Assembly (NCBI GenBank): GCA_028280355.1
Contig: JANQMB010000248.1
Location: 1 to 44,061 of the forward strand
Origin: Verrucomicrobiales bacterium
GTDB taxonomy: Bacteria > Verrucomicrobiota > Verrucomicrobiia > Verrucomicrobiales > DEV007
Length of the DNA: 44,061 nt
Direction of reading: 5' to 3'
Made by a program: the position numbers and the translations under genes. Positions within the stretch are counted from its first letter, which is position 1. Each line of letters begins with the position of its first letter. Of the stretch, positions 4,722 through 41,511 are shown one piece after another. Below the pieces are notes generated by a model. The model worked only from the letters and a program-made list of their open reading frames with translations, searched no databases and was not told the DNA's origin.

Positions 4722-4860
4722 TCCGTATTTATCGCACGGATGTAGCAGCGCCCACGCGATCCCGGTAGCAGCCGGGTTTTCACGCAAAACCTGATAAAAC
4801 CTGAAGACGCGACAAAAGTGCGCCGCCCGGCCGAAGCTGGGTTTCGAGAAGGGACAGCCG

Positions 4861-5283
4861 GTGGTCTGGCGCCCCGGTCGCCGCAAGAGCTGGCGGTTTG
4901 TCTCCTACTGCCCTCCGGCGTCCTCCAACCGCACCCCGACCCACTGCTGGGTGGTGTGCGTCAGCCACCCGGCTGTCCCCGTCCTCAAGGTTCTCCTGCG
5001 CAATGTCGATCCCGTCGCCCCAGAGCAGTTCACCTTTGACCAATACCTCACCCGCGAAGTCCGAGCTGGCCGCGTTGATTGCGGAAGTCTCACGTTGTCG
5101 GTCGGAGGTGTGGGCGGCCGGCCGTCTTCTCCAGGAGGCGGCGCTAGACCAGGGCTCGGCGGAGGTTCGGCTGTTGACCGCCGGCGGCTGGGAGCTTGGC
5201 GGCAACGGGTTATGGAGTCACCCGAGCGACCCTGCGCAGGCGGGGCTGGCTCGACATCAGGCGGTAACGACGATCTGCGGTAA
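4861..5283 (+). CDS. possible early phage gene, frame uncertain
   Basis: This frame is open from 4798 and reads as plausible protein from about 4801 to about 5080, for example KLGFEKGQPVVWRPGRRKSW and a stretch containing CWVVCVSHPAVPVLKVLL. After that it becomes Gly/Pro/Arg-rich like an out-of-frame reading. Starts available are CTG at 4801 and GTG at 4861. At the point where it loses quality the next frame becomes protein-like (5003-5290). The two may be overlapping genes, one frameshifted gene, or a site of programmed +1 frameshifting. No family is recognised. Confidence 0.35.
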   Translation: MVWRPGRRKSWRFVSYCPPASSNRTPTHCWVVCVSHPAVPVLKVLLRNVDPVAPEQFTFDQYLTREVRAGRVDCGSLTLSVGGVGGRPSSPGGGARPGLGGGSAVDRRRLGAWRQRVMESPERPCAGGAGSTSGGNDDLR

Positions 5284-5290
5284 GCTGTGA
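5003..5290 (+). CDS. possible small early phage protein
   Basis: Ninety-five codons start with ATG at 5003. The middle (KSELAALIAEVSRCRSEVW, then AAGRLLQEAAL) looks like a real amphipathic helical segment. It overlaps the 3' half of the frame from 4861. Function is unknown; it sits at the head of the replication gene cluster. It may be the C-terminal half of a protein whose N-terminal half lies in the upstream frame. Confidence 0.4.
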   Translation: MSIPSPQSSSPLTNTSPAKSELAALIAEVSRCRSEVWAAGRLLQEAALDQGSAEVRLLTAGGWELGGNGLWSHPSDPAQAGLARHQAVTTICGKL

Positions 5291-5311
5291 GTGCTCGGGA
5301 TACATTGTCCG

Positions 5312-5587
5312 ATGGCAAAGATGGATTGGGTGTCGCCGCGCAAGGACGCGCAGCGCGCCGCTTTGAAGGTGCTGGTGGCCGCTCGGCGGGACTACCTGCA
5401 GTCGCGGAAAGAGTATCGGTTCAGGCGCGCCGCCCACGAGGCGTCGGCGCGCGCCTACCTGAAGGCGTGGCGCTGGAAGGAACTTCCGGGCGGCTGGGTC
5501 AGCGAACACATACTCGGGGTTTTCACCCTTCGGGACGCCGTCCGCGCCCAGCTGAAGGAAGACCCCCGCGCCACTAAGAAATCATGA
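5312..5587 (+). CDS. small basic phage protein
   Basis: The 91-residue product begins MAKMDWVSPRK and is strongly basic and helical (AARRDYLQSRKEYRFRRAAHE), so a nucleic-acid-binding or coiled role is possible. A GTG at 5291 would add seven residues. Its stop overlaps the next start in an ATGA at 5584-5587, which shows translational coupling within the replication operon. It matches no family that I recognise. Confidence 0.65.
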   Translation: MAKMDWVSPRKDAQRAALKVLVAARRDYLQSRKEYRFRRAAHEASARAYLKAWRWKELPGGWVSEHILGVFTLRDAVRAQLKEDPRATKKS

Positions 5588-5832
5588 GCGAGGAAGCCCC
5601 CCTTAGCCCCGAAGAGTCCGCGCAGGCCGGCGAGAGCACGCTGGCCGTCATCGCCGCGATGTTGAGCGACAGGTTGCGCGGTTGTGGGAACCACCTCCAC
5701 AACCGCCTTGCGAACGGCGAGCGCATCAGCGCCCGGGAGATGTCTATCAAGCTGCGCCACGCCGCCGGCCTCTGTGACGCCATCGACGCCATCTATTTCG
5801 AGGAGGATCGGGGTTTCCCGTCGTTGGGATGA
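5584..5832 (+). CDS. small acidic phage protein upstream of rep
   Basis: The 82-residue product (MSEEAPLSPEES...) is acidic at both ends with a helical middle (TLAVIAAMLSDRLRG; MSIKLRHAAGLCDAIDAI). It is coupled by ATGA overlaps to the gene before and to rep after it, so it belongs to the replication operon. No DNA-binding motif is certain. A regulatory or copy-control role would fit the position but is only a guess. Confidence 0.65.
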   Translation: MSEEAPLSPEESAQAGESTLAVIAAMLSDRLRGCGNHLHNRLANGERISAREMSIKLRHAAGLCDAIDAIYFEEDRGFPSLG

Positions 5833-6758
5833 TCATCATGCGAGCGCAGACCCCGGACTGGTTCACCGCGGAGGGCGCGGGGCTCAAGCTCGCCCAGATC
5901 CGCCGCCGCGGCATCCCGTGGATGACGAATTGGCGTTTCACGACGCTCACCGTTGACCCCGAGCGCTTCGGCTATGATGAGCGCGCGTGCTACGAGGCTG
6001 GCAAGGCGCACATGCGCCGTTTCCTGGCCGCCCTCCGCGATCTCGTCGGCCACGACTTCCGGTGGTGCTGGAAGATGGAGTTTCACCGCAGCGGCTTCGT
6101 CCACTGGCATCTGTGTTGGGATCACCGCTCGAAGCTGCCCCCCTGGCAGCTAGAGGAGATCGGCCACCTCTGGGGTCTCGGCCGGGTCGAGACCAAGCGC
6201 ATCCGCTCCGGCACCCTAGACTACCTTTGGAAATACATTGCCAAGGAGTCCTTCAGCGACGGCCGGGGTCTCGGTCTGCCCGGCTGGTTCCTCGACCACC
6301 GCCACCAGTCGGGTTCCGACCGCCCCCAGACCTACGACCGCGTCCGGTTCTGGCAGACCTCGCGGGGTTTCTACACCGGTGAGCCGGACAGGAACCCCCC
6401 GCCGCCTCCGCCCCGCTCCAGCATCCTCCCCCGCCGCGTCCGCGACCTCGTCGAGGAGAAGCGGCGCAAGGCGCGGGTGGTCGCGCTCGGCCTCTGGGGT
6501 CAGCCCGTCAAGAGCGCCACCGTCGTCCTCAAGCGCCCCTGGCGTGAGGTCTCCGGCCTCATGGGTCGCCTGATACTCCGCGGCCGCGCCGCCGCCCGAA
6601 CCATCTCACAATACGTTGCTCAAGATAGAGTTATAGAGAACCTGATAACAAGACCATGCCTACTGAAGCTAAGCCCCGTCCGAAAAGCGAACCTGATACC
6701 ACCCCATCGCCTGATAGCCCACCAGATGCGCCTGATGGGGCTGGCAACGCCCTTCTGA
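5829..6758 (+). CDS. rolling-circle replication initiation protein (HUH endonuclease)
   Basis: The 309-residue product has the three motifs of HUH Rep proteins: FTTLTVDP (37-44, motif I), GFVHWHLCWD with H92-W-H94 as the metal-binding HUH (motif II), and DYLWKYIAKE with Y132/Y136 as candidate nucleophiles and K135 (motif III). Such enzymes nick the plus-strand origin and stay covalently bound during rolling-circle synthesis, the role of gene II protein in Ff phages. It starts in an ATGA overlap with the upstream gene; ATG at 5838 is an alternative. The C-terminus after the Pro run (about residue 192) is basic. Its last 103 nt overlap the next gene in another frame. Confidence 0.88.
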   Translation: MIIMRAQTPDWFTAEGAGLKLAQIRRRGIPWMTNWRFTTLTVDPERFGYDERACYEAGKAHMRRFLAALRDLVGHDFRWCWKMEFHRSGFVHWHLCWDHRSKLPPWQLEEIGHLWGLGRVETKRIRSGTLDYLWKYIAKESFSDGRGLGLPGWFLDHRHQSGSDRPQTYDRVRFWQTSRGFYTGEPDRNPPPPPPRSSILPRRVRDLVEEKRRKARVVALGLWGQPVKSATVVLKRPWREVSGLMGRLILRGRAAARTISQYVAQDRVIENLITRPCLLKLSPVRKANLIPPHRLIAHQMRLMGLATPF

Positions 6759-7039
6759 GTCTCATTGGCGAGGGCGCCGGCCTCCGCTATCAGGGGCTTG
6801 TCGTCGCAGCCGAGGAGCCCCGCTCCGGTGTCAGCCGCGAGGGCAACCGCCCCTGGGCTCGCCAGACGTTCAAATGCACCGATGGCAAGACCACCATCGG
6901 CCTCAACCAGCGTGCCGACACTATCGACCAGCTCCCGCCCGCCCTCCCCATCGGTTCGGTCGTCGAGGTTCTGGTCACCTCCGTCCAGCAGGCCAATTTC
7001 GGGGAGATCACCATCGGCGGCGATATCTCCATCGTGTGA
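6656..7039 (+). CDS. putative phage single-stranded DNA-binding protein
   Basis: This 127-residue protein directly follows rep, the usual place for the inoviral ssDNA-binding protein (gene V role: coating plus strands before assembly). A Pro-rich disordered N-terminus of about 28 residues is followed by a beta-rich segment (GLRYQGLVVAAEEPRSG, ARQTFKCTDGKTTIGL, GSVVEVLVTSV) that could form a small OB-fold barrel. There is no diagnostic motif, so the function rests on position and predicted fold. It starts 103 nt before the end of rep; a later start would remove the overlap but also the disordered tail. Confidence 0.6.
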   Translation: MPTEAKPRPKSEPDTTPSPDSPPDAPDGAGNALLSLIGEGAGLRYQGLVVAAEEPRSGVSREGNRPWARQTFKCTDGKTTIGLNQRADTIDQLPPALPIGSVVEVLVTSVQQANFGEITIGGDISIV

Positions 7040-7046
7040 AAGACGC

Positions 7047-7079
7047 GGGCGCCGCGGTGCCGCCCGGAGGGCGGCGCCC
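7047..7079 (+). terminator. GC-rich hairpin between replication and structural genes
   Basis: GGGCGCCG (7047-7054) pairs with CGGCGCCC (7072-7079), and inner GC pairs are possible. It follows the ssb stop by 8 nt. There is no proper T-tract, so it may be an attenuator or mRNA-stability element. Confidence 0.4.
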
Positions 7080-7124
7080 GGCGCCCCCCCTTTCCTTGTT
7101 AGATACATGCATAACTGACACGGC

Positions 7125-7247
7125 ATGACCTCGGATCATCTCCTCTCTTCGGTAATGGCGGGGTTCTGGCTCGCGGCCGGCGTCTACTGGGCGTGCCGGG
7201 GCGCCGCGTTCATGTGGATGGCCTTTAAGATTCCAGCTGGGGACTGA
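7125..7247 (+). CDS. 40-aa single-pass membrane protein, possible minor coat protein
   Basis: This short ORF encodes a 40-residue peptide starting MTSDHLLSSVMAGFWLAAGV, with one hydrophobic segment and a lysine near the C-terminus. Filamentous phages carry one or two such tiny proteins (pVII/pIX type) next to the coat gene. It lies between ssb and the major coat protein on the coding strand. There is no Shine-Dalgarno sequence, and the call depends on size, hydrophobicity and position. Confidence 0.55.
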   Translation: MTSDHLLSSVMAGFWLAAGVYWACRGAAFMWMAFKIPAGD

Positions 7248-7311
7248 ACGGCGGGCGCCCTGCGCTCCGTCACAAGCCGGGAGAACCGGATAACCAAACC
7301 AGGAAAACGAT

Positions 7312-7476
7312 ATGCTTCCTATCCTCGGACAAGCTACCCCGCCGGTCGATCTGGCGCCCACCGGCACTACCATCGCCGGTTTCGTTGCCACGGCAGCGAC
7401 CGCGGGTCTCGGCATCATGGCGGCGATCTATGGCCTCAAGGTCATGATTCGCGCGTTCAAGACCGCCGCGAAGTAG
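7312..7476 (+). CDS. putative major coat protein (pVIII-like, no leader peptide)
   Basis: The 54-residue product has the inovirus major coat layout: a short N-terminus with a single acidic residue (PPVDLAPTG), a helix of about 25 hydrophobic residues starting IAGFVATAATAGLGIMAAIY, and a basic end (KVMIRAFKTAAK) that would face the DNA. There is no cleavable signal, as in Pf3 coat protein. AGGA at 7301-7304 gives a Shine-Dalgarno sequence 7 nt before ATG, one of the few good ones nearby and fitting for a highly made protein. A strong hairpin follows the stop. Confidence 0.8.
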   Translation: MLPILGQATPPVDLAPTGTTIAGFVATAATAGLGIMAAIYGLKVMIRAFKTAAK

Positions 7477-7484
7477 CGCAACAC

Positions 7485-7523
7485 GGCGCTGTCGGGGGTT
7501 CCTCCCTGACCTCCGGCAGCGCC
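7485..7523 (+). terminator. strong hairpin after the major coat gene
   Basis: GGCGCTG (7485-7491) and CAGCGCC (7517-7523) pair, and the stem extends inward by CGG and GG with small bulges. It sits 8 nt after the coat stop, where Ff phages have a terminator that keeps coat mRNA abundant. No T-tract follows, so termination is unproven. Confidence 0.45.
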
Positions 7524-7534
7524 ACCCCACCCTC

Positions 7535-7735
7535 ATGGCTCAATTTCTCACAGGCGTCTATCTCCTCGTCCCGGTCTTCTTTGGCGTCCTCGCTTTGATC
7601 GGTGCCGCCAAGGTAGCCTTCAGGATCTATTCCGAGGCGAGGCGCCTGGATTCGGACGGCGCGGAGCTTCTTGAGGACGATCCCCCCGGTTTCGACGGGG
7701 GCGAGCAACCCGGCGACCGGGATCTAGACTTGTGA
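7535..7735 (+). CDS. small membrane protein, putative minor coat protein
   Basis: The 66-residue product has one long hydrophobic segment (residues 5-27, starting LTGVYLLVPVFFGVLALIG), a basic stretch (RIYSEARR), then a very acidic C-terminal tail ending DRDLDL. It starts after the coat hairpin and overlaps the next gene in GTGA. The layout suits an inner-membrane minor virion or assembly protein. No family is recognised. Confidence 0.65.
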   Translation: MAQFLTGVYLLVPVFFGVLALIGAAKVAFRIYSEARRLDSDGAELLEDDPPGFDGGEQPGDRDLDL

Positions 7736-8145
7736 GGATCACCTTTGCCATCTGTTTCTTTGCTACCCTTGCACCGGCCGCCGCCGTGCATTGCCACGTC
7801 TTCAACCTGAGCGGCGACGGCACCGCCCCCAATGCGCAGATCTACTATACCCCCCAATCGTCGCCTTCGGCGACGGCGCGGCCTCTGGTTGTTGACCCGG
7901 GCGCTGGCGAGGTCTTGCTCGATTGCTCACGCCTGGGGCGTTCGGCGGCTTCTCTCGTTGATCTTTCGACGTTAGGGGTGCCGGAGGTCTGTGTCGTGCT
8001 CGCCGCTGACGGCACCCTCCAGATCGAGCCTTGGCTCGCTCCCGGCGTCTCGTCCCAGACCTTTTCGCTTTCGGCGCTCGGCATCGCGGTCGGTGTCCTC
8101 CTCTTCTTCGTCACCGTGGCCGGTTTCAGGGGGTTTATTTCGTGA
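7732..8145 (+). CDS. secreted/anchored minor virion protein
   Basis: The 137-residue product starts at GTG in a GTGA overlap with the gene before. Residues 1-19 form a signal peptide (MRITFAICFFATLAPAAAV). A small beta-type periplasmic domain with three cysteines follows, and a C-terminal membrane helix (about 113-131, starting LSALGIAVGVLLFFVTVAG) closes it. This is the topology of a small virion-tip protein. The next gene again overlaps by GTGA. Confidence 0.65.
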   Translation: MRITFAICFFATLAPAAAVHCHVFNLSGDGTAPNAQIYYTPQSSPSATARPLVVDPGAGEVLLDCSRLGRSAASLVDLSTLGVPEVCVVLAADGTLQIEPWLAPGVSSQTFSLSALGIAVGVLLFFVTVAGFRGFIS

Positions 8146-9626
8146 GGCGCGTAGTTTCCATATTCTTGTTAATGTCGTCGTTTCCATCCGGCGCCAAAGA
8201 CATCGCTTTCGAGTTGAGCGGCAACGGTGCCAACTGGGGTTTTTCGGTTTACGGGGCGGGTTCTGACCTTGGCGCGTCAACCAATCTCAGCGGTTGGGGC
8301 GCGCCGATCAAGACCGGCCAGGGCATCTCGGTCAAGGTCGATCTTACGAACACGAGCCCGTCGGAGAAGACCTACTATTGGTATCCTCCTGACGTGAGCA
8401 CGGGGACCATCGTCGGCACCGGTTACACGAAGTCCTTCGACTGGTGGTCTTACGGTCTCCGCACGACGGTCGTCCCGGCTGGCCAGACCGTCCCCGTGAT
8501 TCTCGCCGCGGAGATGCGCCCGTGGTTTACCTTCGCTTTCGACTCGACGCAGCCGAACGCGTTCCTGAGCCAGCAAGCTTTCTCCGGCGAGACGGTTTTC
8601 ACCGTCCGCCTGGCCGACGCCGCGGGCGTCCCGAACGGCCAGGCGTTCTCGGCCAAGTATTCGTATTCCTCGTCGGGCATCACCGCCCGCGCCGAGCCCC
8701 GTTTCGACGTGACCTATACGGGCGGCGACAGCGAGGTCGTCATCGAGGTCACCGACGCCCTGCCGGTCGTCATCGACGCCAATGTCGGGTTCGCCCTCGG
8801 CCTCGCCAACTACCGCGAGGGCGCCGACAAGGTCGAGCTTTGGGTCGATGGGTCGAAGGTCTACGAGCAGGATATGACGGGGCACGTCGATGGTGTCGCC
8901 GTCGTCGCCACCTACGACGCGGTGTCGACCAACGGGAGCCTGCACGGCAAGGCCTACGAGTGGCGGCTCGCCAGCGACAGCCGCGTCTTGGCGTCTGGCA
9001 CGACTCCGGCTTGGGTTGTGTCGGTTGACCCCGAGACGGGCGGCCAGGTCGGCAACTCGTTTCTGGCGAAGGATACGGCCGTTCTGAACGGGGCGAACCC
9101 CTTCTATGACATCGAAACGGAGCCTGGCACCGATCCGCGGGAGTCGGTAGATAACTGGGCTGCCCCTGACGCGGACGGCGACGGCATAGCGGGCTCGCCT
9201 GGCGACCCCGCGCTTGATCAGATGAAGAAGTCGGATTTCTACGACGCTTTCCGGGGCGCCATCGAGGGCGCGGCTGCGGAGGGTCCAGCGCCCCCGAAGG
9301 AGGTTGGGCAAGCTGACTTTCTCGGCGGCGGTGACGCCAACGCCCTCGGTGGCTCCGGCCTCGCCTCGGCCGCCTCTAGCGCGCGCTCTGGCGTCGATTC
9401 GCTGACGTCCGGGCTCGGCTCCGCCGTTCCTGGCCTCCCCTCGCTCCCCTCGCCCAGCGGCCGGACGTTCCAACACCCGGTGACGCTCCCCATCGTCGGC
9501 TCTTTCGTAATCGATTTCAGCGAGCATCAGGGCGTGATAGACGCCATCCGCAACCTCATCTTGCTCTGTGTGTCCATCCTCACGTGGTATTATTTTGTGA
9601 AGATTGTTAGGGGGGCAAGCTCTTAG
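8142..9626 (+). CDS. pIII-like adsorption/tip protein
   Basis: I place the start at GTG 8142, inside a GTGA overlap, because it yields a signal peptide (MRRVVSIFLLMSSFPSGA); the frame is open upstream but that would overlap the previous gene fully. The 494-residue product has a large beta-rich, Gly/Ser-rich extracellular part, an Asp-rich segment with DADGDG near residues 343-348 resembling a calcium-binding loop, a Ser/Gly/Pro linker, and a C-terminal membrane anchor (LILLCVSILTWYYFVKIV). Length, topology and position before the pVI-like and Zot genes identify it as the host-recognition protein, which binds a receptor or pilus and completes release. The receptor cannot be read from the sequence. 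Confidence 0.78.
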   Translation: MRRVVSIFLLMSSFPSGAKDIAFELSGNGANWGFSVYGAGSDLGASTNLSGWGAPIKTGQGISVKVDLTNTSPSEKTYYWYPPDVSTGTIVGTGYTKSFDWWSYGLRTTVVPAGQTVPVILAAEMRPWFTFAFDSTQPNAFLSQQAFSGETVFTVRLADAAGVPNGQAFSAKYSYSSSGITARAEPRFDVTYTGGDSEVVIEVTDALPVVIDANVGFALGLANYREGADKVELWVDGSKVYEQDMTGHVDGVAVVATYDAVSTNGSLHGKAYEWRLASDSRVLASGTTPAWVVSVDPETGGQVGNSFLAKDTAVLNGANPFYDIETEPGTDPRESVDNWAAPDADGDGIAGSPGDPALDQMKKSDFYDAFRGAIEGAAAEGPAPPKEVGQADFLGGGDANALGGSGLASAASSARSGVDSLTSGLGSAVPGLPSLPSPSGRTFQHPVTLPIVGSFVIDFSEHQGVIDAIRNLILLCVSILTWYYFVKIVRGASS

Positions 9627-9628
9627 CC

Positions 9629-9994
9629 ATGAAGAAGCTTTTCTCTTGGATCGGCACCATCTTCCAGGCCGTAAAGGCCGGGTTCAGGATGATCGGCCAG
9701 GCCTGGGTCGCGGTCAGCGGTTTCATCATCGCGGTGGTCACGATGACCATCGACTCTATCCAGTGGGTCGTGGCCAAGATCCCGGAGTTTCTCGGCATGG
9801 TCGCCCAGCTGGTGACGATGGGGCAGAACTCCAGCATGTTTTCACAGGGCTCGGCGGAGCTGAACATGCTGAACACTGCCAACGTGTTCTTCCCGCTCAA
9901 CGAGACCATATCGGCCGTCGGGTTCCTGGCCGCCACGTGGCTCGTCGCGACGTCGATAAGGACGGTCAAGGCGTGGATCCCGACGCTCGGCTAG
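9629..9994 (+). CDS. pVI-like minor coat protein
   Basis: The 121-residue product lies two bases after the adsorption gene and four before zot. It has an amphipathic N-terminus (MKKLFSWIGTIFQAVKAGFR), a hydrophobic helix (AWVAVSGFIIAVVTMTI) and a C-terminal hydrophobic segment (ISAVGFLAATWLVATSI), as in the pVI/DUF2523-type proteins found between pIII and Zot in many inoviruses. In Ff, pVI caps the virion together with pIII. The call rests on synteny and topology. Confidence 0.7.
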   Translation: MKKLFSWIGTIFQAVKAGFRMIGQAWVAVSGFIIAVVTMTIDSIQWVVAKIPEFLGMVAQLVTMGQNSSMFSQGSAELNMLNTANVFFPLNETISAVGFLAATWLVATSIRTVKAWIPTLG

Positions 9995-9997
9995 CCT

Positions 9998-11197
9998 ATG
10001 GCCATCGAGGTTTTCGAGGGCAGGCTCGGTGGTGGCAAGAGCTATTCGGCCGTCGAGCGGATCGCGGCCGTCCTCGCCAGGGGCGGCACGGTCTGCACGA
10101 ACATCGATATCGTGTGGCCGGAGATGGTGGCCTTCTGCGCTTCCCGCTTCGGGGTGAAGCTCAAGGCCGGGCAGCTGCGCCATCTCTCCGAGGGTCAGAT
10201 CCCGAACTTTCACCTCCACACGCCCGGGGGCACCATGGATTGCCCCACCTTGGTCGTCATCGATGAGGCGCAGCTGTATTGGAACGCCCGAGACTTCAGC
10301 AAGACGGACAAGGATCAGCGCGAGCTCCTGAAGTTTCTCACGCAGAGCCGGAAGGCCGGCACCGACGTCATCTTCATCACGCAGAATGTGAAGAACGTCG
10401 ATGCCCAGTTCGTCCGCCTCGTCCAGTTCGTCTGGCGCTTCAGGGATATGAGCAAGTATCGCGTGCCCGGCCTCGGCATCCGTTGGCCGTTCGACCAGAT
10501 CCTCCAGGTCTGTTTCGACTACGACGGCAAGACCCAGCAGTCACGCCGCCTGGCGAGGAAGGACAAGGCCATCTTCAAGCTCTACGACACGACGGAACTC
10601 CTCCAGTCTTTCGACCGCGCCGGCACCGTCGGCCGTGTCACCCTCGAACGCGCGAAACCGAAAAGGAAACTGAAGATGAAATGGATTGTGCTCGCCCTTG
10701 TCGCCTCCGGGTTTGCTATCTACAAGCTTGTTAGTGGAGGGTTGCCCTTTGTCCCGTCCGACCCCGCGCCAGTGGCCGCGTCGGCTCCTGCCCCGGATGT
10801 GGTTTTCCGCGATAGCCAGCCAGTTCCCTCCTTCGCCGACAGCCCCCCCGCCCCATCGGCCGCCGGTTCTGGACTCGAGCCTGGCGAGCCCGTCTGGGCG
10901 GGGAGGTATTTCGTGGTGCTAGAGGGGCTGAGGGGGGCCGGCGTGTCCAGGGTGGACGGGCTGCCCTACCTCGTCACCTCCGGCGGAACCTACCGCCTCG
11001 GCAAGAACTGCCGATACGGGCGGGTGGAGAAGGTCCAGGGGCGCAAGGCGCGGGTCAGGATGCGCGACGGCCGGACGATGGTCGTCGAGACGTTCGACGA
11101 CTCCCGCGAGCGCTGGGCGGAGTTCCGGCGCCGCCAGAGCGACCCTGAGCCCCTTGCCGAGGAGCCCTCCCCCGCCCTCTCGCCGGCCGTCTTCTGA
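9998..11197 (+). CDS. zot: Zot-family phage assembly ATPase (pI-like)
   Basis: The 399-residue protein carries a Walker A loop GRLGGGKS (8-15), a Walker B strand LVVIDEAQ with D89-E90, and the family pattern FLTQSRKAGTDVIFITQN. A membrane helix lies at about 229-246, followed by a Pro-rich linker and a small periplasmic domain. This is the standard layout of inovirus morphogenesis proteins, which use ATP at the inner membrane to strip ssDNA-binding protein and extrude the phage. The name Zot comes from a Vibrio homologue; nothing here suggests toxin activity. It is the most diagnostic inovirus gene in the element. Confidence 0.93.
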   Translation: MAIEVFEGRLGGGKSYSAVERIAAVLARGGTVCTNIDIVWPEMVAFCASRFGVKLKAGQLRHLSEGQIPNFHLHTPGGTMDCPTLVVIDEAQLYWNARDFSKTDKDQRELLKFLTQSRKAGTDVIFITQNVKNVDAQFVRLVQFVWRFRDMSKYRVPGLGIRWPFDQILQVCFDYDGKTQQSRRLARKDKAIFKLYDTTELLQSFDRAGTVGRVTLERAKPKRKLKMKWIVLALVASGFAIYKLVSGGLPFVPSDPAPVAASAPAPDVVFRDSQPVPSFADSPPAPSAAGSGLEPGEPVWAGRYFVVLEGLRGAGVSRVDGLPYLVTSGGTYRLGKNCRYGRVEKVQGRKARVRMRDGRTMVVETFDDSRERWAEFRRRQSDPEPLAEEPSPALSPAVF

Positions 11198-11406
11198 TGC
11201 GCCTCGCCCTTTCGAGTGCGTTTTGGGGCGCCCTTGGCGCCCTGCCTGTCGCCGGCCTGGTAGCCGGCGGCTCCACCGTAGACGTCTTGGTCGTCATCCC
11301 TGCGCGAGCCGGGCGGGATTCGCTCGTCCTTGCCGTCCCGCTGATGCTCGCCGTCTGCGGGCTCCTCGCGTGGCGCTTGGGGCGCCCTAGGGGCACCTCC
11401 GGGTGA
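11197..11406 (+). CDS. small two-helix membrane protein after zot
   Basis: The ATG shares its A with the last base of the zot TGA stop, a tight coupling. The 69-residue product has two hydrophobic segments (SSAFWGALGALPVAGLVAGG and LVLAVPLMLAVCGLLAW) and a basic end. It closes the plus-strand structural operon. The last 20 bases overlap a convergent minus-strand gene. Function is unknown; an assembly or export accessory would fit. Confidence 0.5.
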   Translation: MRLALSSAFWGALGALPVAGLVAGGSTVDVLVVIPARAGRDSLVLAVPLMLAVCGLLAWRLGRPRGTSG

Positions 11407-11578
11407 AGGTGTGCTGGCCGCCGGTCATCTTCAGCCACCCCGCCGGGATCGTGTTCCCGCCCACCGAGGCGACCTCGGCTCCGTCTTGTGAGAGTGTGAG
11501 TTTCATCGCCCAGACCGTCTCGGTCAGTTCGATGTGGAATTTCGCTTTGGGCGCCGTGCTGTGTTTGATGCTGTTCAT
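11387..11578 (-). CDS. small phage protein on the minus strand
   Basis: The 63-residue product starts MNSIKHSTAPK and is preceded by an excellent Shine-Dalgarno sequence (AGGGGGG, 2-3 nt before ATG on the minus strand). Its second half (MKLTLSQDGAEVASVGG) resembles the start of the protein at 12318-12512 (MKYSIKYEGTEVAR): both show MK, alternating hydrophobics, D/E-G-x-E-V-A. A plus-strand frame over the same bases (11403-11615) has no comparable support. Function is unknown; the location suggests a regulator or superinfection function. Confidence 0.55.
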   Translation of the reverse strand: MNSIKHSTAPKAKFHIELTETVWAMKLTLSQDGAEVASVGGNTIPAGWLKMTGGQHTFTRRCP

Positions 11579-11602
11579 GACCCCCCTAGCGCAGGGAGCC
11601 TT

Positions 11603-11688
11603 GGAAAAGGCCTAAGCTTTTCGCCCTTTTTTTGGGGGCTACAAAGTAGCCGGTTCCAACAAAAATGGCGAAAAGCGTGGCCTTTTCC
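11603..11688. repeat. large nested inverted repeat, candidate origin or packaging signal
   Basis: Arms at 11603-11625 and 11667-11688 are complementary over about 20 of 22 positions (GGAAAAGGCC, two or three variable bases, then GCTTTTCGCC). Nested inside is a 6-bp hairpin GGCTAC-AAA-GTAGCC at 11637-11651. It sits between divergent genes (minus 11387-11578, plus 11860-12078), so a terminator is less likely. Filamentous phages keep replication origins and the packaging hairpin in such a gene-free region. Confidence 0.7.
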
Positions 11689-11821
11689 CAGCCCCTGCTA
11701 GCTTGGGGAATGAACGGCGGCAAACACGGTATGGCGCCTGTGGATTGCTTGGAGTGACTGCGGTATTGTAGTTTTTGTCGATCTCCAAAAAGGTGACGCT
11801 GGCGGGCTCGCCAGGTCGCCC

Positions 11822-11850
11822 TTGCCGTCGTTCTCGCTGCGCGCTATAGT
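11822..11850 (+). promoter_or_regulatory. sigma-70-type promoter for the gene at 11860
   Basis: TTGCCG (11822-11827), a 17-nt spacer and TATAGT (11845-11850) give a near-consensus promoter. The ATG at 11860 lies ten bases downstream, so the message would be leaderless or nearly so. Confidence 0.65.
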
Positions 11851-11859
11851 CTGCTAGCT

Positions 11860-12078
11860 ATGATTGGAGATATCCGGCAGTTGCTCGCGGCGAATCCTTT
11901 TGAGCCGTTCATCGTCGTCACGACCGGGGGCAATAGCTATACGGTTCCGACCTCTGACCATGCGGGCATCAGCCCGTCTGGGGGTCGCCTGGTCATCTGG
12001 TTCGATGACGACAGCAGCGTGACCATCGCCGGTTTGCACATCGTGGCTCTTGAATCGGGGAATTCGGTTTCCGCGTGA
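11860..12078 (+). CDS. small conserved-looking hypothetical protein
   Basis: The 72-residue product (MIGDIRQLLAANPFEPFIVV...) has an N-terminal helix followed by short beta strands (NSYTVPTSDHAG, RLVIWFDDDSSVTIAG, LHIVALE). It resembles small regulatory-type proteins of the same layout in related phyla, but I can name no family. It has its own promoter and no Shine-Dalgarno sequence. It is convergent with the minus-strand gene at 12087-12299. Confidence 0.65.
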   Translation: MIGDIRQLLAANPFEPFIVVTTGGNSYTVPTSDHAGISPSGGRLVIWFDDDSSVTIAGLHIVALESGNSVSA

Positions 12079-33650: not shown

Positions 33651-36767
<3,117 letters not shown>

Positions 36768-36888: not shown

Positions 36889-39144
36889 ATGCAGCGCGCC
36901 TTCGCCCTCCTCGCCCCGATCCTCACCTGGCTCGCGTTCACTTCCAGCGCACGCGCCCAAGATCCGGTCCAGCTCGAACTGCTGAGCGATGTCGTTGCGG
37001 TGGAGCCCGGCGGGACGTTTAAGCTCGCCGTGCGCGCCCAGATCGAACCGGGCTGGCACATCTATTGGACGAACCCCGGTGATAGCGGGCTGCCGACCTT
37101 GGTGGAGTGGACGGCTCCGGACGGGTTCGAGGCTGGGGCGCTGCAATACCCGATCCCCCACCGTTACGTGCAGAAGGTCGGCGATGACTTCATGCTCGTC
37201 AGCCACACCTTCGAGGGTGAAGCCTACTTCATCTCCGAGTTCAAGGCGCCCGAGGGGATCGCCCCGGGATCGGCCGTGACCATCTCAGCGAGCGTCGACT
37301 GGCAGGCCTGCAAAGAGGTCTGCACACCGCCGATGAACACCCCGCTCGAGATCGAGCTATCGGTCGCGGATACCGCCGCCCCTTCGCCGGACGCCGCAGC
37401 CATTGCCAAGGCTTGGGGGGGCGGCCAGGCGGGCGCCGAGGTCGCGAGGGCGACGGTGGCGAACGACGGGGGACAGCTGGCGCTGGTCGCGAAACTGCCG
37501 GACGGCAAGGAGGAGCAGTACAGCGGCGACCTCTTCTTCCTGCCGGCGGCCGCGGAGATTTCCGCCGCGGCGAGCGAGCAGATCGCGGCCCGCGAAGGAT
37601 CGCAGCTCAGCATCTGGACCGACCTCGCCAAAAAGGACGTCGAGATCCCGGAAGTGGTCCGAGGGTTCGTCGTCGGCGAAGGCGCCGCCCCGCTGTGGGT
37701 CGAGGCGATGTTGGTCAAGTCGACCGAAACCCCAGTCAGCTCGCCCACTGAGAAGCCCACACCTACATCGAGCGGTGCCGGGAGCTATCCGCCCAGCGCC
37801 AGCCCCGAGGCGGAGCCGATCCGCGCAGCCATCAAGGAATTGGCCAGCGGCATCGAGAAGAAGTCGATCTCCTTGCTGCTGATGCTCGCCGCGGCCTTCC
37901 TCGGAGGGATCATTCTGAACCTCATGCCCTGCGTGTTCCCGGTCTTGGGCATCAAGATCTTGGGCTTCGTGCAACAGGCGGGCAGCGACCGCGCGAAGAT
38001 CCGGCGCCACGGCTGGGTGTTCGCCCTCGGGGTGATCTTGTCCCTGTGGGCGCTGGTCGCCGTGCTACTGATCATCCGCGCGGCGGGCGCCAGCGCCGGC
38101 TGGGGCTTCCAGCTGCAGGAGCCGTGGTTCGTGATCTTCCTGATCGCCATCATGTTCATCTTCGCCCTCAACCTCGCTGGCGTGTTCGAATTGGGCACGT
38201 CGCTCACCGGCACGGGCGCCGGGCTACAGGCGCAACATGGCTATGGTGGTTCCTTCTTCTCCGGCGTGCTGGCCGTGCTCGTTGCGACGCCCTGCACCGG
38301 GCCGTTCATGGGACCCGCCTTGGGCTTCGCGCTCTCTGGCCCAGCCTATACCGGGTTCGCCATCTTCACCGCCTTGGCGCTCGGCCTGGCCTTGCCCTAC
38401 GTGGTGCTCTCCTACTTCCCGGCTCTGATTGAGAAACTCCCGCGTCCGGGGCCGTGGATGGAAACTTTCAAGCAGGCGATGTCCTTCCCGCTCTTCGCCA
38501 CCGTCGTCTGGCTGCTCGCCGTGCTCGGCAAAGGGCAAGGGCAAGGAGCGATCCTATGGGTGCTGATCGGCCTGATCGTGCTCTCCCTCGGCTTCTGGCT
38601 CTACGGCCGCTACGCGACACCGCTCAAAAAGCCGCCGACCCGCTGGACCGCCCGCGCCGCGACGGCGCTGGCTGTGCTGAGCTTCGTCTACATCGGCAGC
38701 AAGGCGGTGGATAGCGGGGAAAGCGGGGCGATCGCCTCGGCCTCAAAGACGGTGCACGGGCTCGAATACGAACCCTTCGACCCCGTGAAGGCGCTGGAGT
38801 ACGTGAAGGCTGGAAAGAACGTTTTCGTCGACTACACGGCCGTCTGGTGAGCGACCTGCAAGACCAATGAACAGTTTGTTCTGCACACCGAAGAAATCAG
38901 CTCCAAGATCAAAGAACTCGGCATCATCCCGATGATCGCCGACCAGACCGACAAGGAGAACTGGGTGCTCAGCGAGTTCCTCAACGAGATGAAGCAGCCG
39001 AACATCCCCTACTACCCGCTGCTGCTCGGCTCGAAAGAGGGCAAGGTCGTCGAACTGCCGGCCCAGTTGTCGCCACCGGCGATCCTCCCTGGACCGGCCA
39101 AGGCGAAATTCATCGAAGCGCTCGAGGAAGCCGTGGGGAGCTAG
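36889..39144 (+). CDS. dsbD: DsbD-family thiol:disulfide interchange protein, predicted selenoprotein
   Basis: DsbD carries reducing power from cytoplasmic thioredoxin across the inner membrane to periplasmic partners. From ATG 36889 the product has a signal peptide (MQRAFALLAPILTWLAFTSSARAQ), an N-terminal domain with C141-KEV-C145, a membrane part with LMPCVFPVLGIK (C348) and ATPCTGPFMG (C469), and a C-terminal thioredoxin domain. The frame meets TGA at codon 654, in W-TGA-A-T-C, where the first redox Cys belongs, then runs uninterrupted for 97 codons to TAG. The TGA read as selenocysteine gives U654-A-T-C657, and all partner cysteines remain. A SECIS-like hairpin follows. The alternative is a nonsense mutation (TGC or TGT to TGA). 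The N-terminal TTG at 36868 is a less likely start. Confidence 0.85.
38848..38850 (+). other. in-frame TGA, predicted selenocysteine codon
   Basis: This TGA replaces the first Cys of the thioredoxin-domain W-C-x-x-C motif, giving FVDYTAVW-Sec-ATCKTNEQF. Upstream and downstream frames are the same and there are no other stops. Replacement of a redox Cys by Sec (U-x-x-C) is the usual pattern in bacterial selenoproteins of thioredoxin fold. Confidence 0.75.
38869..38881 (+). promoter_or_regulatory. candidate bacterial SECIS hairpin
   Basis: GAACA (38869-38873) and TGTTC (38877-38881) form a perfect 5-bp stem with loop GTT. The loop G is 23 nt after the TGA, inside the 16-37 nt window described for bacterial SECIS elements, which need a small loop with G in the first two positions. 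Flanking TGCA/TGCA could extend it with a bulge. Confidence 0.5.
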
Positions 39145-39171: not shown

Positions 39172-40938
39172 TCACTTCGTCTCCGAGCGGAGCTTCGCCA
39201 TGTCGTTGGCGAGGATCGACTGCGGCTGGGGTTTGAGGATCTCCTCAGCGAGCCCCAGCGCCTCGCGGGCGTCCCCCTCCCTGCCCCCGCGGAGACAGGC
39301 CTGGACGTAAGGCTGGACGAGATTGTAGAACAGGTGGCCGCCGGCGTTGCGCTTGAAGCGCCTCATCACCCGCGCGTACTCTTTGGCCGCGTCCCCCCAC
39401 TCGCCGGCCTCCTGGTGGGCGAAGACGGCGTCCGCCGCCACCGCGATACCCAGGTCGAAACGCTTCGAACGGTTCTCGCTGACGATCTGCCGCGCCAGCC
39501 GCTCCGCCCCACTCTCGTCGCCCGTGGCGCGCAGCACCCGCAACAGGGCACGCTGCCCCTTCGCCTTCATGTCGCGCTCGCCGGCGAAGTTGGCGACCCA
39601 GCGCTCCCAGAACCTCTTGCGCATCGCCAGCTCCGCGCCCGACGAGGCGAGCCACTCGGCCTCCAGCTCCCACGGCTCGAACACCCGCGGCATCGCCCGC
39701 TGGGCGGCATGGAGGATCTCGGGATAGCTGTCCTCCCCGGCGTTCATCGCCGCCCAGGCGAGCACCAGCCGGCCGCGGGCGACCGACGGGCTGTCCCCCT
39801 CCCCCTTGATCGAGAACTCCATCTGCTGGTCGCTAAAGCGGCGCCAGGTCTGCGGGTCGAAGGCGGTGCCGATCGGGTAGTTCTCGCCGCGCCAGCGGGC
39901 GGCGTCGAGCGTCCAGCGCCCGCGCCCGGTGAGGAACCCGACCCAGGCGTGATCCCCAGAGCGCCCCTGGCCCATGAACAGGACGGTGGGGACGCCGAGC
40001 GATTTGCCGGCATGGGCGACGAAATAGGCCTGATCCATGCAGATGCCGCCCCGCTTGCCGATGTCGATCAGGCGATACCGCCCGTGCGGCCACCCGTATC
40101 GCCCGGCGGCGATGCGGCCGTTGTCGTAGGGCACGGCGCGGTAGAGTTGCTCCAGCTTGGAGATATTCTTCATCTTCACCTGCTGCACGTAGCCCAGCTC
40201 CCGCAGTTCGACCGGCGTGTCGACGACGAAAGTGAGCTCGCGGACCGTCAGCGAGTCCGGGTCGAGGAGGAGCTTCCCAGCACGCTGCGAACCGACGTAG
40301 AACGCGAACCGTTTTTCAGGCTCTGGGTCGCCGCGGGGGATGTCGCCCTCCCCGACGTTCTGGTGCGGCCACCCCGGGGGCGTCGGCTGATCCCAGACGA
40401 CGGCGAAGGCGACGGCGAGTTTCTGGAATTCGACAAAGGCGCGAGGGTGGGCGCGGTGGATGGTGCACAGCACCTGGAGCGCGGCGGCGGGCTCGTCGCG
40501 CGTGCTGAGAGACTTCGCGACCAGGGCCGGAAACCCATCGATGCGGGACAGTTCGCGGAAGCTCTCGAACCCCTCCGCGCGGGAGAAATAGGGGTGTCCG
40601 GCATGGTCCTCCGGGAACATCTGGATCCAGCGGAGATGGGTCAGCCACCCCATGAAATGGGAGTTCGACAGGCAGCGTGACAAACCCTGCTTGGCCTGTG
40701 CGGCACGCAGCGCCGCCAGCAGCTCCCGGCGGCCGGACACCACCTCGGCGGGTGTCAGGTGCTCCGCCCACCAGCGCTCCTGCGCCTTTCCGTTCCAGAG
40801 CTTGAGCCGCGGTGCGTCCTCAGCGGAGATGGCCACCCAGGAAGAGGCCACATAGAGGAGGAATGCAAGCCATCGCCAGCCCCACCGCCAGGCGCCTCCG
40901 ACCCGGCTCCGGCCCGTCCTGTGGGTCGCTTGCGCCAT
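39172..40938 (-). CDS. membrane-anchored transglutaminase-like protein
   Basis: The product is 588 residues from ATG 40938 (MAQATHRTGRSRVGG); the open frame continues far upstream but over another gene. A signal or anchor helix (about 20-40, ending VAISA) is followed by a helical region, then a transglutaminase/papain-like core with GGICMDQ (C300), GDHAWVGFL (H330) and WTLDAARW (D345), a Cys-His-Asp triad in the right order. The C-terminal 200 residues are helical and TPR-like. Substrate is unknown; such proteins may act as proteases or cross-linkers at the cell envelope. It is convergent with dsbD. Confidence 0.82.
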   Translation of the reverse strand: MAQATHRTGRSRVGGAWRWGWRWLAFLLYVASSWVAISAEDAPRLKLWNGKAQERWWAEHLTPAEVVSGRRELLAALRAAQAKQGLSRCLSNSHFMGWLTHLRWIQMFPEDHAGHPYFSRAEGFESFRELSRIDGFPALVAKSLSTRDEPAAALQVLCTIHRAHPRAFVEFQKLAVAFAVVWDQPTPPGWPHQNVGEGDIPRGDPEPEKRFAFYVGSQRAGKLLLDPDSLTVRELTFVVDTPVELRELGYVQQVKMKNISKLEQLYRAVPYDNGRIAAGRYGWPHGRYRLIDIGKRGGICMDQAYFVAHAGKSLGVPTVLFMGQGRSGDHAWVGFLTGRGRWTLDAARWRGENYPIGTAFDPQTWRRFSDQQMEFSIKGEGDSPSVARGRLVLAWAAMNAGEDSYPEILHAAQRAMPRVFEPWELEAEWLASSGAELAMRKRFWERWVANFAGERDMKAKGQRALLRVLRATGDESGAERLARQIVSENRSKRFDLGIAVAADAVFAHQEAGEWGDAAKEYARVMRRFKRNAGGHLFYNLVQPYVQACLRGGREGDAREALGLAEEILKPQPQSILANDMAKLRSETK

Positions 40939-40992
40939 CGTCCCAATGTCTGCTAGGCTGCCACATCGGCAATCCCGAATTCGCCCCTCCCG

Positions 40993-41511
40993 ATGTGTCG
41001 CCCCCTCGCCCTCGCCGCCCTCGCCAGCATCCTGTTCTCCTCCTGCAAACGTGACGACGGAGGCTCGAAGCGGTTTCGCCCCACCCCACCCAACAACGAC
41101 TACCGCAAACGGGACGAGGTCTACCCCTTCGAGCGCAGGCTCGTCGACGAGGCCGGCCGGAAGCTCGACGTGGTAGTGGTCGGCCGCTCCAAGACCAAGG
41201 TGGTGTTCCAGAAGCGCGACTCCCCCAAACGCATCCACTACCCGCTGGACTCCCTGTCTGAGGAAGACAGGGTCTTCCTCGGCTCGTTGCCGATCAAGGA
41301 GTGGGATGGGGATGGCCAGAAGGGCGCCGATGTCGGCTGGCTGGAACAGGAGCGCCTTCGCCTCGAGGGGAAGATCGCCGAGTTAAAGAAAGAGCGTGAG
41401 CGCACCCCAGATGCCGCCACCCGGACCCGCGCCCTCAACCGCAAGATCACCGAACTGGAGAACGAGCGCAGGGAGATCCTGACCGAGCTGCGCGGCCGCG
41501 GCCGGCGCTAG
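40993..41511 (+). CDS. putative lipoprotein with SHD1-like domain
   Basis: The 172-residue product has a short hydrophobic leader and Cys18 (LALAALASILFSSCK), so it is probably a lipoprotein, though the lipobox FSSC is imperfect. The middle (ERRLVDEAGRKLDVVVVGRSKTKVVFQKRD, then HYPLDSLSEEDRVFL) follows the SHD1 pattern (Sla1 homology domain 1) common in exported proteins of Planctomycetota and Verrucomicrobiota. A charged coiled coil (RLEGKIAELKKERE...ELENERREILTEL) ends it. It is divergent from the transglutaminase-like gene and just upstream of the ligase-family gene's 3' end. Confidence 0.8.
   Translation: MCRPLALAALASILFSSCKRDDGGSKRFRPTPPNNDYRKRDEVYPFERRLVDEAGRKLDVVVVGRSKTKVVFQKRDSPKRIHYPLDSLSEEDRVFLGSLPIKEWDGDGQKGADVGWLEQERLRLEGKIAELKKERERTPDAATRTRALNRKITELENERREILTELRGRGRR

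What the first reader, a model, noticed from the sequence alone, without database searches (positions are those of the whole stretch)
36889..39144. DsbD with an in-frame TGA at the redox cysteine: a predicted selenoprotein DsbD
The thioredoxin domain of this DsbD reads W-TGA-A-T-C, with the TGA exactly where the N-terminal, nucleophilic Cys of the CxxC should be. The frame goes on for 97 codons with normal composition and ends at a TAG next to the convergent gene. All other DsbD cysteines (C141/C145, C348, C469, C657) are present. Sec at the attacking position of U-x-x-C is the known pattern for bacterial thioredoxin-fold selenoproteins; a Sec version of the whole trans-membrane DsbD would make the last relay step faster or more strongly reducing. 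Standard annotation would truncate the gene and call a separate 70-aa fragment.
Basis: partly seen in the sequence, partly recalled or inferred. Interest (0 to 1): 0.9.

Follow-up and report, generated by a model that had tools for sequence, protein, structure and literature searches.

The report
Selenocysteine-containing DsbD/ScsB membrane reductase
A Verrucomicrobiales bacterium appears to make its membrane-spanning periplasmic electron-relay protein (DsbD/ScsB type) with selenocysteine instead of the key reactive cysteine, and at least 24 related genes do the same, so this is a conserved selenoprotein that standard annotation cuts short rather than a broken gene.

Summary
Window 36889-39144 (+) reads as a 751-aa DsbD-superfamily protein with one in-frame TGA (38848-38850, residue 654) in W-U-A-T-C and a TAG stop. 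It is not an error or pseudogene: the same TGA occurs in 25 distinct verrucomicrobial loci, aligned with the nucleophilic Cys of Cys homologues. The genome has SelA, tRNA-Sec(UCA), a SelD that itself carries Sec, and a contig-edge SelB fragment; UGA is otherwise a stop (secA). A hairpin with a G-bearing loop 20-27 nt after the UGA occurs in 22/24 Sec loci against 21/108 Cys loci. The frame after the UGA is under purifying selection and completes the thioredoxin fold.

Corrections: the alpha region is ScsB-like (PDB 6c29), and the Sec sits in the middle of the relay (TM to gamma to alpha), not at its last step.

Prior art limits novelty. A UxxC "Thiol:disulfide interchange protein" selenoprotein family is in print (2006, 2008, 2026), in 2008 under cd02953, from memory the DsbD-gamma domain; TsoB is another DsbD-like selenoprotein. 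The 119-family inventory of 2026 does not name a full-length Sec DsbD/ScsB. New variant of a known kind; well supported, moderately interesting.

The parts
36889..39144 (+). Full coding sequence of the Sec-containing DsbD/ScsB-type protein (751 aa, ATG ... TAG)
   Evidence: Pfam DsbD_N, DsbD_TM, Thioredoxin_7 all above cut-off; homologues of the same length
36889..36957 (+). Probable signal peptide (residues 1-23, MQRAFALLAPILTWLAFTSSARA)
   Evidence: by inspection; hydrophobic helix 2-18 in the model, low confidence there
36958..37713 (+). Periplasmic alpha region (residues 24-275), beta-rich, ScsB-like; carries C141 and C145
   Evidence: DsbD_N 37-151; Foldseek best hit ScsB N-terminal domain 6c29, TM-score 0.68 by target; profile hit to 6c29, E 8e-10, over 229 positions
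37876..38520 (+). DsbD_TM membrane domain (residues 330-544) with the relay pair C348 / C469
   Evidence: Pfam PF02683, E 3e-17; both Cys invariant in A1
38761..39141 (+). Gamma (thioredoxin-fold) domain, residues 625-751, split by the UGA after its first core strand
   Evidence: Thioredoxin_7 640-699; aligns with E. coli cDsbD 2fwe/1uc7; secondary structure of the model
38848..38850 (+). In-frame TGA = predicted selenocysteine 654 (U of the UxxC motif; resolving C657)
   Evidence: aligned with Cys in Cys homologues and with TGA in 24 other loci
38869..38881 (+). bSECIS-like hairpin GAACA-GUU-UGUUC; G of the loop is nt 24 after the UGA
   Evidence: sequence; equivalent hairpins in 22/24 Sec loci against 21/108 Cys loci. 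The window's own hairpin is weak: 53-nt MFE -6.8 kcal/mol, z = 0
33651..36767 (+). secA, upstream neighbour on the same strand; ends in TGA, so UGA is a normal stop codon in this genome
   Evidence: Pfam SecA domains; secA-dsbD order kept in G014 and G016
39172..41238 (-). Convergent downstream ORF (688 aa, no Pfam hit), conserved beside dsbD in G011 and G014

Best explanation
This is a genuine selenoprotein gene. The UGA at 38848 is read as selenocysteine by the organism's own SelA/SelB/SelC/SelD system, aided by a small stem-loop just downstream. The product is a full-length DsbD/ScsB-type reductant conduit: periplasmic alpha region, multi-pass membrane beta domain, thioredoxin-fold gamma domain. 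By analogy with E. coli DsbD, electrons pass from cytoplasmic thioredoxin to C348/C469 in the membrane, then to U654-x-x-C657 of the gamma domain, then to C141/C145 of the alpha region, and on to periplasmic thiol proteins. Sec is the attacking residue of the gamma domain. Shown by sequence: the frame, the conserved UGA, the machinery, the hairpin, the domain layout and the cysteines. Inferred: actual Sec insertion, the electron route, and a kinetic benefit. In E. coli the gamma nucleophile is held at an unusually high pKa of 10.6 by two acidic residues (PMC3961690). Their counterparts D648 and E661 are kept here, yet a selenol would be ionised anyway, so I expect the Sec form to be a faster, less gated donor.
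For: TGA at the same column in 25 distinct loci: 21 genomes of the family, G423 of the same order, and three Akkermansiaceae MAGs. SelA 402 bits; tRNA-Sec 63.7 bits against a gathering score of 47, anticodon TCA; SelD 354 bits with its own Sec motif CGUAAK; SelB C-terminal 218 residues, 53% identical, cut by the end of contig C124. Of 21 family genomes with the TGA form, 20 have SelA, the exception being 54% complete; of 41 with a Cys form, 23 have SelA (Fisher p 0.0013). Stem of 5 bp or more with a G-bearing loop 20-27 nt after the codon: 22/24 Sec against 21/108 Cys (p 3e-11); mean stem 5.8 bp against a maximum of 5.1 in 500 synonymous resamplings. After the UGA, dN 0.19 against dS 0.48 and 73% identity to the nearest relative. 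The Sec/Cys label needs 3 changes on the tree against 22 when shuffled. D648, U654, C657 and E661 align with E. coli D455, C461, C464 and E468.
Against: No direct evidence of selenium in the protein. A complete selB was not recovered (the MAG is 85.6% complete), and the fragment lacks the GTPase part. The window's own hairpin folds weakly (-6.8 kcal/mol against a published threshold of -7.5). Two Sec loci (L033, L035) lack the simple hairpin. Sec loci are related, so the counts are not independent. The electron route rests on analogy.
Confidence: 0.9

Rival explanations
1. It is not new: it is one more member of the already catalogued UxxC selenoprotein family 'Thiol:disulfide interchange protein' (Trx-like 2, cd02953), found here in Verrucomicrobiales. 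The mechanism is the same as in the best explanation; only the novelty differs.
For: PMC2398784 lists cd02953, UxxC, 22 Sec sequences; PMC1794560 lists the family in Syntrophus and Geobacter; PMC13188914 lists it as PF13098, WP_011366075.1. cd02953 is, from memory, the DsbD-gamma domain of CDD.
Against: The catalogue assigns PF13098 (Thioredoxin_2), whereas this protein hits PF13899 plus DsbD_TM and DsbD_N, and only 2 of 14 relatives hit PF13098. No held paper that I found describes a full-length DsbD or ScsB with Sec, and Verrucomicrobiota are not mentioned in the selenoprotein papers searched for them.
Confidence: 0.4
2. The UGA is a real stop that yields a truncated alpha-beta protein (653 residues, no complete gamma domain), with the 70-aa remainder a relic or a separate product.
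For: This is what standard gene calling gives. The truncated form could be made when selenium is short.
Against: The UGA cuts the thioredoxin fold just after its first core strand. The tail is under purifying selection, and the TGA is kept in 25 loci with no other stop in the frame.
Confidence: 0.04
3. Sequencing error, assembly error or a decayed gene.
For: The genome is a fragmented MAG.
Against: The same TGA was assembled independently in many genomes of several genera, always in the first position of CxxC where read out, and with selA in all but one of the family genomes.
Confidence: 0.01
4. UGA is reassigned or suppressed with an ordinary amino acid (e.g. Trp, Cys) in this lineage.
For: The frame reads through a TGA.
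Against: UGA ends normal genes here (secA at 36765-36767). A TCA-anticodon tRNA of the Sec class exists, with SelA and SelD. The position is a nucleophilic Cys in Cys homologues.
Confidence: 0.02

Closest known systems
Selenoprotein family 'Thiol:disulfide interchange protein' (Trx-like 2; cd02953 / PF13098; WP_011366075.1)
   Same: UxxC motif in a thioredoxin-fold domain, Sec at the attacking position; cd02953 is (from memory) the DsbD gamma domain
   Different: Listed under a thioredoxin domain only, from Deltaproteobacteria and short ocean reads; no full-length DsbD/ScsB architecture and no Verrucomicrobiota described in the held texts. The architecture of WP_011366075.1 could not be checked here
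TsoB (NF045694), rhodanese/DsbD fusion-like selenoprotein
   Same: DsbD-like membrane and thioredoxin region with Sec; best NCBIfam score of the window protein (152.8 bits, residues 321-703)
   Different: Far under TsoB's cut-off of 805; TsoB has a UxxxxU motif with two Sec; this protein has one Sec in UxxC, a DsbD_N region and no rhodanese domain
ScsB (DsbD superfamily; Proteus mirabilis, 6c29)
   Same: Large periplasmic alpha region of the same fold (TM-score 0.68 by target), then the TM domain, then the gamma domain
   Different: Known ScsB proteins have Cys in the gamma domain (from memory); no scsC/scsD gene was recognised beside this one in the window
E. coli DsbD (PRK00293; cDsbD 2fwe)
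   Same: Three-part layout, six relay positions, D455/E468 counterparts D648/E661
   Different: Sec instead of C461; 751 aa with a much larger alpha region; 129.5 bits against a cut-off of 330

Membership tests
Bacterial selenoproteins (Sec-UGA) | In-frame UGA aligned with a conserved redox Cys of homologues | tested here: met
Bacterial selenoproteins (Sec-UGA) | UGA kept at the site in other Sec-using organisms | tested here: met
   25 distinct loci
Bacterial selenoproteins (Sec-UGA) | Sec machinery selA, selB, selC, selD in the genome | tested here: met
   selA, selC, selD complete; selB only as a C-terminal fragment at a contig end
Bacterial selenoproteins (Sec-UGA) | bSECIS: 4-16 bp stem, 3-9 nt loop with G in its first two positions, 16-37 nt after the UGA, MFE <= -7.5 (model in PMC13188914) | tested here: inconclusive
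   Window: 5-bp stem, loop GUU, loop begins after 23 nt: geometry met, energy not (-6.8). Relatives: 22/24 have the hairpin
Bacterial selenoproteins (Sec-UGA) | Selenium physically present in the protein | not testable with these tools
   needs 75Se labelling or mass spectrometry
DsbD superfamily | Alpha domain, DsbD_TM domain and thioredoxin-like gamma domain in one chain | tested here: met
   PF11412, PF02683, PF13899 above cut-off
DsbD superfamily | Three redox pairs (alpha, TM, gamma) | tested here: met
   C141/C145, C348/C469, U654/C657 invariant in A1, counting U as C
DsbD in the narrow sense (NCBIfam NF001419 / PRK00293) | Score over the curated cut-off of 330 | tested here: not met
   129.5 bits; so 'DsbD superfamily', not DsbD sensu stricto
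ScsB | ScsB-type alpha region | tested here: met
   Foldseek E 2.5e-9 and profile E 8e-10 to 6c29
ScsB | Encoded with scsC/scsD partners | tested here: not met
   neighbours are secA and an ORF without a Pfam match; partners elsewhere in the genome were not sought
TsoB | NF045694 score over 805, two Sec in UxxxxU, rhodanese domain | tested here: not met
   152.8 bits, one Sec, UxxC, no rhodanese hit
'Thiol:disulfide interchange protein' selenoproteins (cd02953 / PF13098) | UxxC in a DsbD-gamma / Thioredoxin_2 domain | tested here: inconclusive
   UxxC met; PF13098 not hit by the window protein and hit by 2 of 14 relatives; CDD not available here

The most novel reading that the evidence does not exclude
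A previously undescribed, long-established subfamily of full-length DsbD/ScsB reductant conduits in Verrucomicrobiales uses selenocysteine as the gamma-domain nucleophile. It would be the first described case of a whole trans-membrane periplasmic thiol-reduction relay that runs on selenium, bypassing the high-pKa gate that protects the Cys enzyme.
Probability: 0.5. Interest if true: 0.65.

Novelty: new variant of a known kind. Interest (0 to 1): 0.5.

Why it matters
It adds a membrane electron conduit to the selenoproteins and shows selenium used in periplasmic protein reduction in a phylum barely covered in the selenoprotein literature. It gives a natural test of a finely tuned enzyme: the E. 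coli gamma nucleophile is kept unreactive by a pKa of 10.6 (PMC3961690), and here evolution put a low-pKa selenol into the same electrostatic frame. It is also an annotation warning, since such genes are called as truncated DsbD plus a fragment.

Tried and rejected
Rfam on the region: no hit. A single fold of 53 nt after the UGA is not more stable than shuffles, so the SECIS argument rests on comparison, not on the window's own energy. A first alignment was wrong because minus-strand loci were not reversed; corrected. A TIGR00475 search gave only EF-Tu-like hits for selB in this genome; a relative's SelB as query found the fragment at the contig end. Conserved gene neighbours as a clue to a partner: only secA (2 relatives) and the convergent ORF (2 relatives), so no partner found. 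Enrichment of Glu at +7 in Sec forms (25/27 against 33/112) was considered as an active-site signal, but the same codon (GAA/GAG) is the 5' arm of the hairpin, so it may reflect the RNA. Kryukov and Gladyshev 2004 and Haft and Tolstoy 2025 are not held.

Full report
OBSERVATION. The region 36889-39144 (+) was read with TGA as U: 751 residues, one U at position 654, stop TAG. The TGA (38848-38850) lies in FVDYTAVW-U-ATCKTNEQ; 97 codons follow it. Table-11 ORF calling ends at 38850. Pfam finds DsbD_N, DsbD_TM and Thioredoxin_7.

NOT CHANCE. The window lies in a 4.42-Mb, 85.6%-complete MAG. tblastn of the read-through protein over 57 relatives showed '1 TGA' inside the match for many, and the alignment put each TGA that was read out at the first Cys of CxxC. 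Over all 75 family genomes held, 21 carry a TGA form; further ones were read out. Named MAGs place the family in Verrucomicrobiales: contigs NYVP01000084, JAPYUT010000028 and JAACDM010000177 have the same lengths as G030:C166, G016:C118 and G027:C524. Three Akkermansiaceae MAGs also carry the TGA, as does G423 of another family of the order. In all, 25 distinct loci.

DECODING SYSTEM. SelA 402 bits. tRNA-Sec 63.7 bits with anticodon TCA. SelD 354 bits, with its own in-frame TGA in TCGUAAK, the known Sec site of SelD. SelB: the family model found only EF-Tu-like matches, but a relative's SelB matched 218 residues of the C-terminal part at 53% identity, 4 bases from the end of contig C124, so the gene is cut by the assembly. 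UGA is otherwise a stop: secA, just upstream, ends in TGA. Among family genomes with a readable DsbD gamma domain, 20 of 21 with the TGA form have SelA (the exception is 54% complete), against 23 of 41 with the Cys form; Fisher p 0.0013, counts made by hand, test. Relatedness is not corrected for.

SECIS. In the window, GAACA-GUU-UGUUC starts 18 nt after the UGA, with the loop G at nt 24. The published bSECIS model asks for a 4-16 bp stem, a loop of 3-9 nt with G in its first two positions, 16-37 nt spacing and MFE at or under -7.5 (PMC13188914). Geometry is met; the 53-nt MFE is -6.8 and no better than shuffles. In relatives the hairpin changes sequence but keeps pairing, e.g. UGAAGC-GGUCA-GCUUCA, UGAGAAG-CGUGU-CUUCUCA, CGAGGGC-CGUGU-GUUCUCG. 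Stems of 5 bp or more with a G-bearing loop at this place: 22/24 Sec, 21/108 Cys (p 3e-11); the Sec mean (5.8 bp) exceeds all 500 synonymous resamplings. None of ten Cys loci from the nearest relatives has it.

SELECTION AND FOLD. Between the window and its nearest relative the tail after the UGA has dN 0.19, dS 0.48 and 73% identity, more conserved than the part before (63%). In the AlphaFold2 model (mean pLDDT 77.7) the UGA falls between the first core strand (644-650) and the active-site helix (655-665) of the gamma domain; stopping there would destroy the domain.

EVOLUTION. In a tree of 132 DsbD proteins built with the redox residue masked, the Sec rows fall in one region (28 rows: 24 Sec, 4 Cys), needing 3 label changes against 22 when shuffled. 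Most Cys DsbDs of the same family sit in a different deep clade, so genomes seem to carry one or the other subfamily; G455 has a Sec copy and two copies without TGA. One old Cys-to-Sec event with two reversals, or two to three events, both fit.

WHAT IT IS. The alpha region matches the N-terminal domain of ScsB from Proteus mirabilis by fold (E 2.5e-9, TM 0.68 by target) and by profile (E 8e-10). DsbD alpha domains come second by fold; the DsbD entries in the profile search match the gamma domain. NCBIfam scores are below cut-off for DsbD (129.5/330) and TsoB (152.8/805). It is best called a DsbD-superfamily protein of ScsB type.

MECHANISM. In E. coli the gamma domain takes electrons from the membrane domain and gives them to the alpha domain, and its nucleophile C461 has a pKa of 10.6 because of D455 and E468 (PMC3961690). 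The PDB alignment maps these to D648, U654 and E661. A selenol ionises at neutral pH (general chemistry), so the electrostatic gate should not hold it protonated; I infer faster, less gated transfer. Electron route and benefit are inferred. No operon partner was found.

PRIOR ART. Sec in 'Thiol:disulfide interchange protein' with UxxC is tabulated in 2006, 2008 (22 ocean sequences under cd02953) and 2026 (PF13098). cd02953 is, from memory, the DsbD gamma domain. The 2026 inventory of 119 families names no full-length DsbD or ScsB; its only DsbD entry is the rhodanese/DsbD fusion-like TsoB. So Sec in this domain type is known, while the full-length verrucomicrobial subfamily appears undescribed in the texts I could read. 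Two key papers were not held.

VERDICT. Selenoprotein: very likely (0.9 with the outline mechanism). New variant of a known kind. Interest 0.5.

Noticed in passing
window 4800-12000 (core genes 5829-6758 + and 9998-11197 +): A replication protein of the REP_ORF2-G2P family and a Zot/pI-type ATPase with small ORFs between them: looks like an integrated filamentous (Inoviridae-like) prophage in a Verrucomicrobiales genome.
   Followed up: no
L043 (G000:C274:6896-7816): The genome's selD is itself a selenoprotein gene (in-frame TGA in TCGUAAK), which independently points to UGA decoding in this organism.
   Followed up: yes
L180:78-932 (G000:C296): A second, 285-aa secreted protein with only the DsbD_N/ScsB-alpha-like part; similar ~300-aa proteins occur in nearly all relatives. 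A possible stand-alone partner or paralogue of the alpha region.
   Followed up: partly
Sec loci, codon +7 after the UGA: Glu in 25 of 27 Sec forms against 33 of 112 Cys forms (mostly Lys); either active-site tuning or a side effect of the hairpin's 5' arm.
   Followed up: partly
L033, L035 (genus g4, G034 and G003): Sec-DsbD genes without the simple hairpin found in the others; atypical SECIS.
   Followed up: no
L169 and G455 (three dsbD copies): One genome carries a Sec copy and two copies without an in-frame TGA, so both types can coexist.
   Followed up: partly
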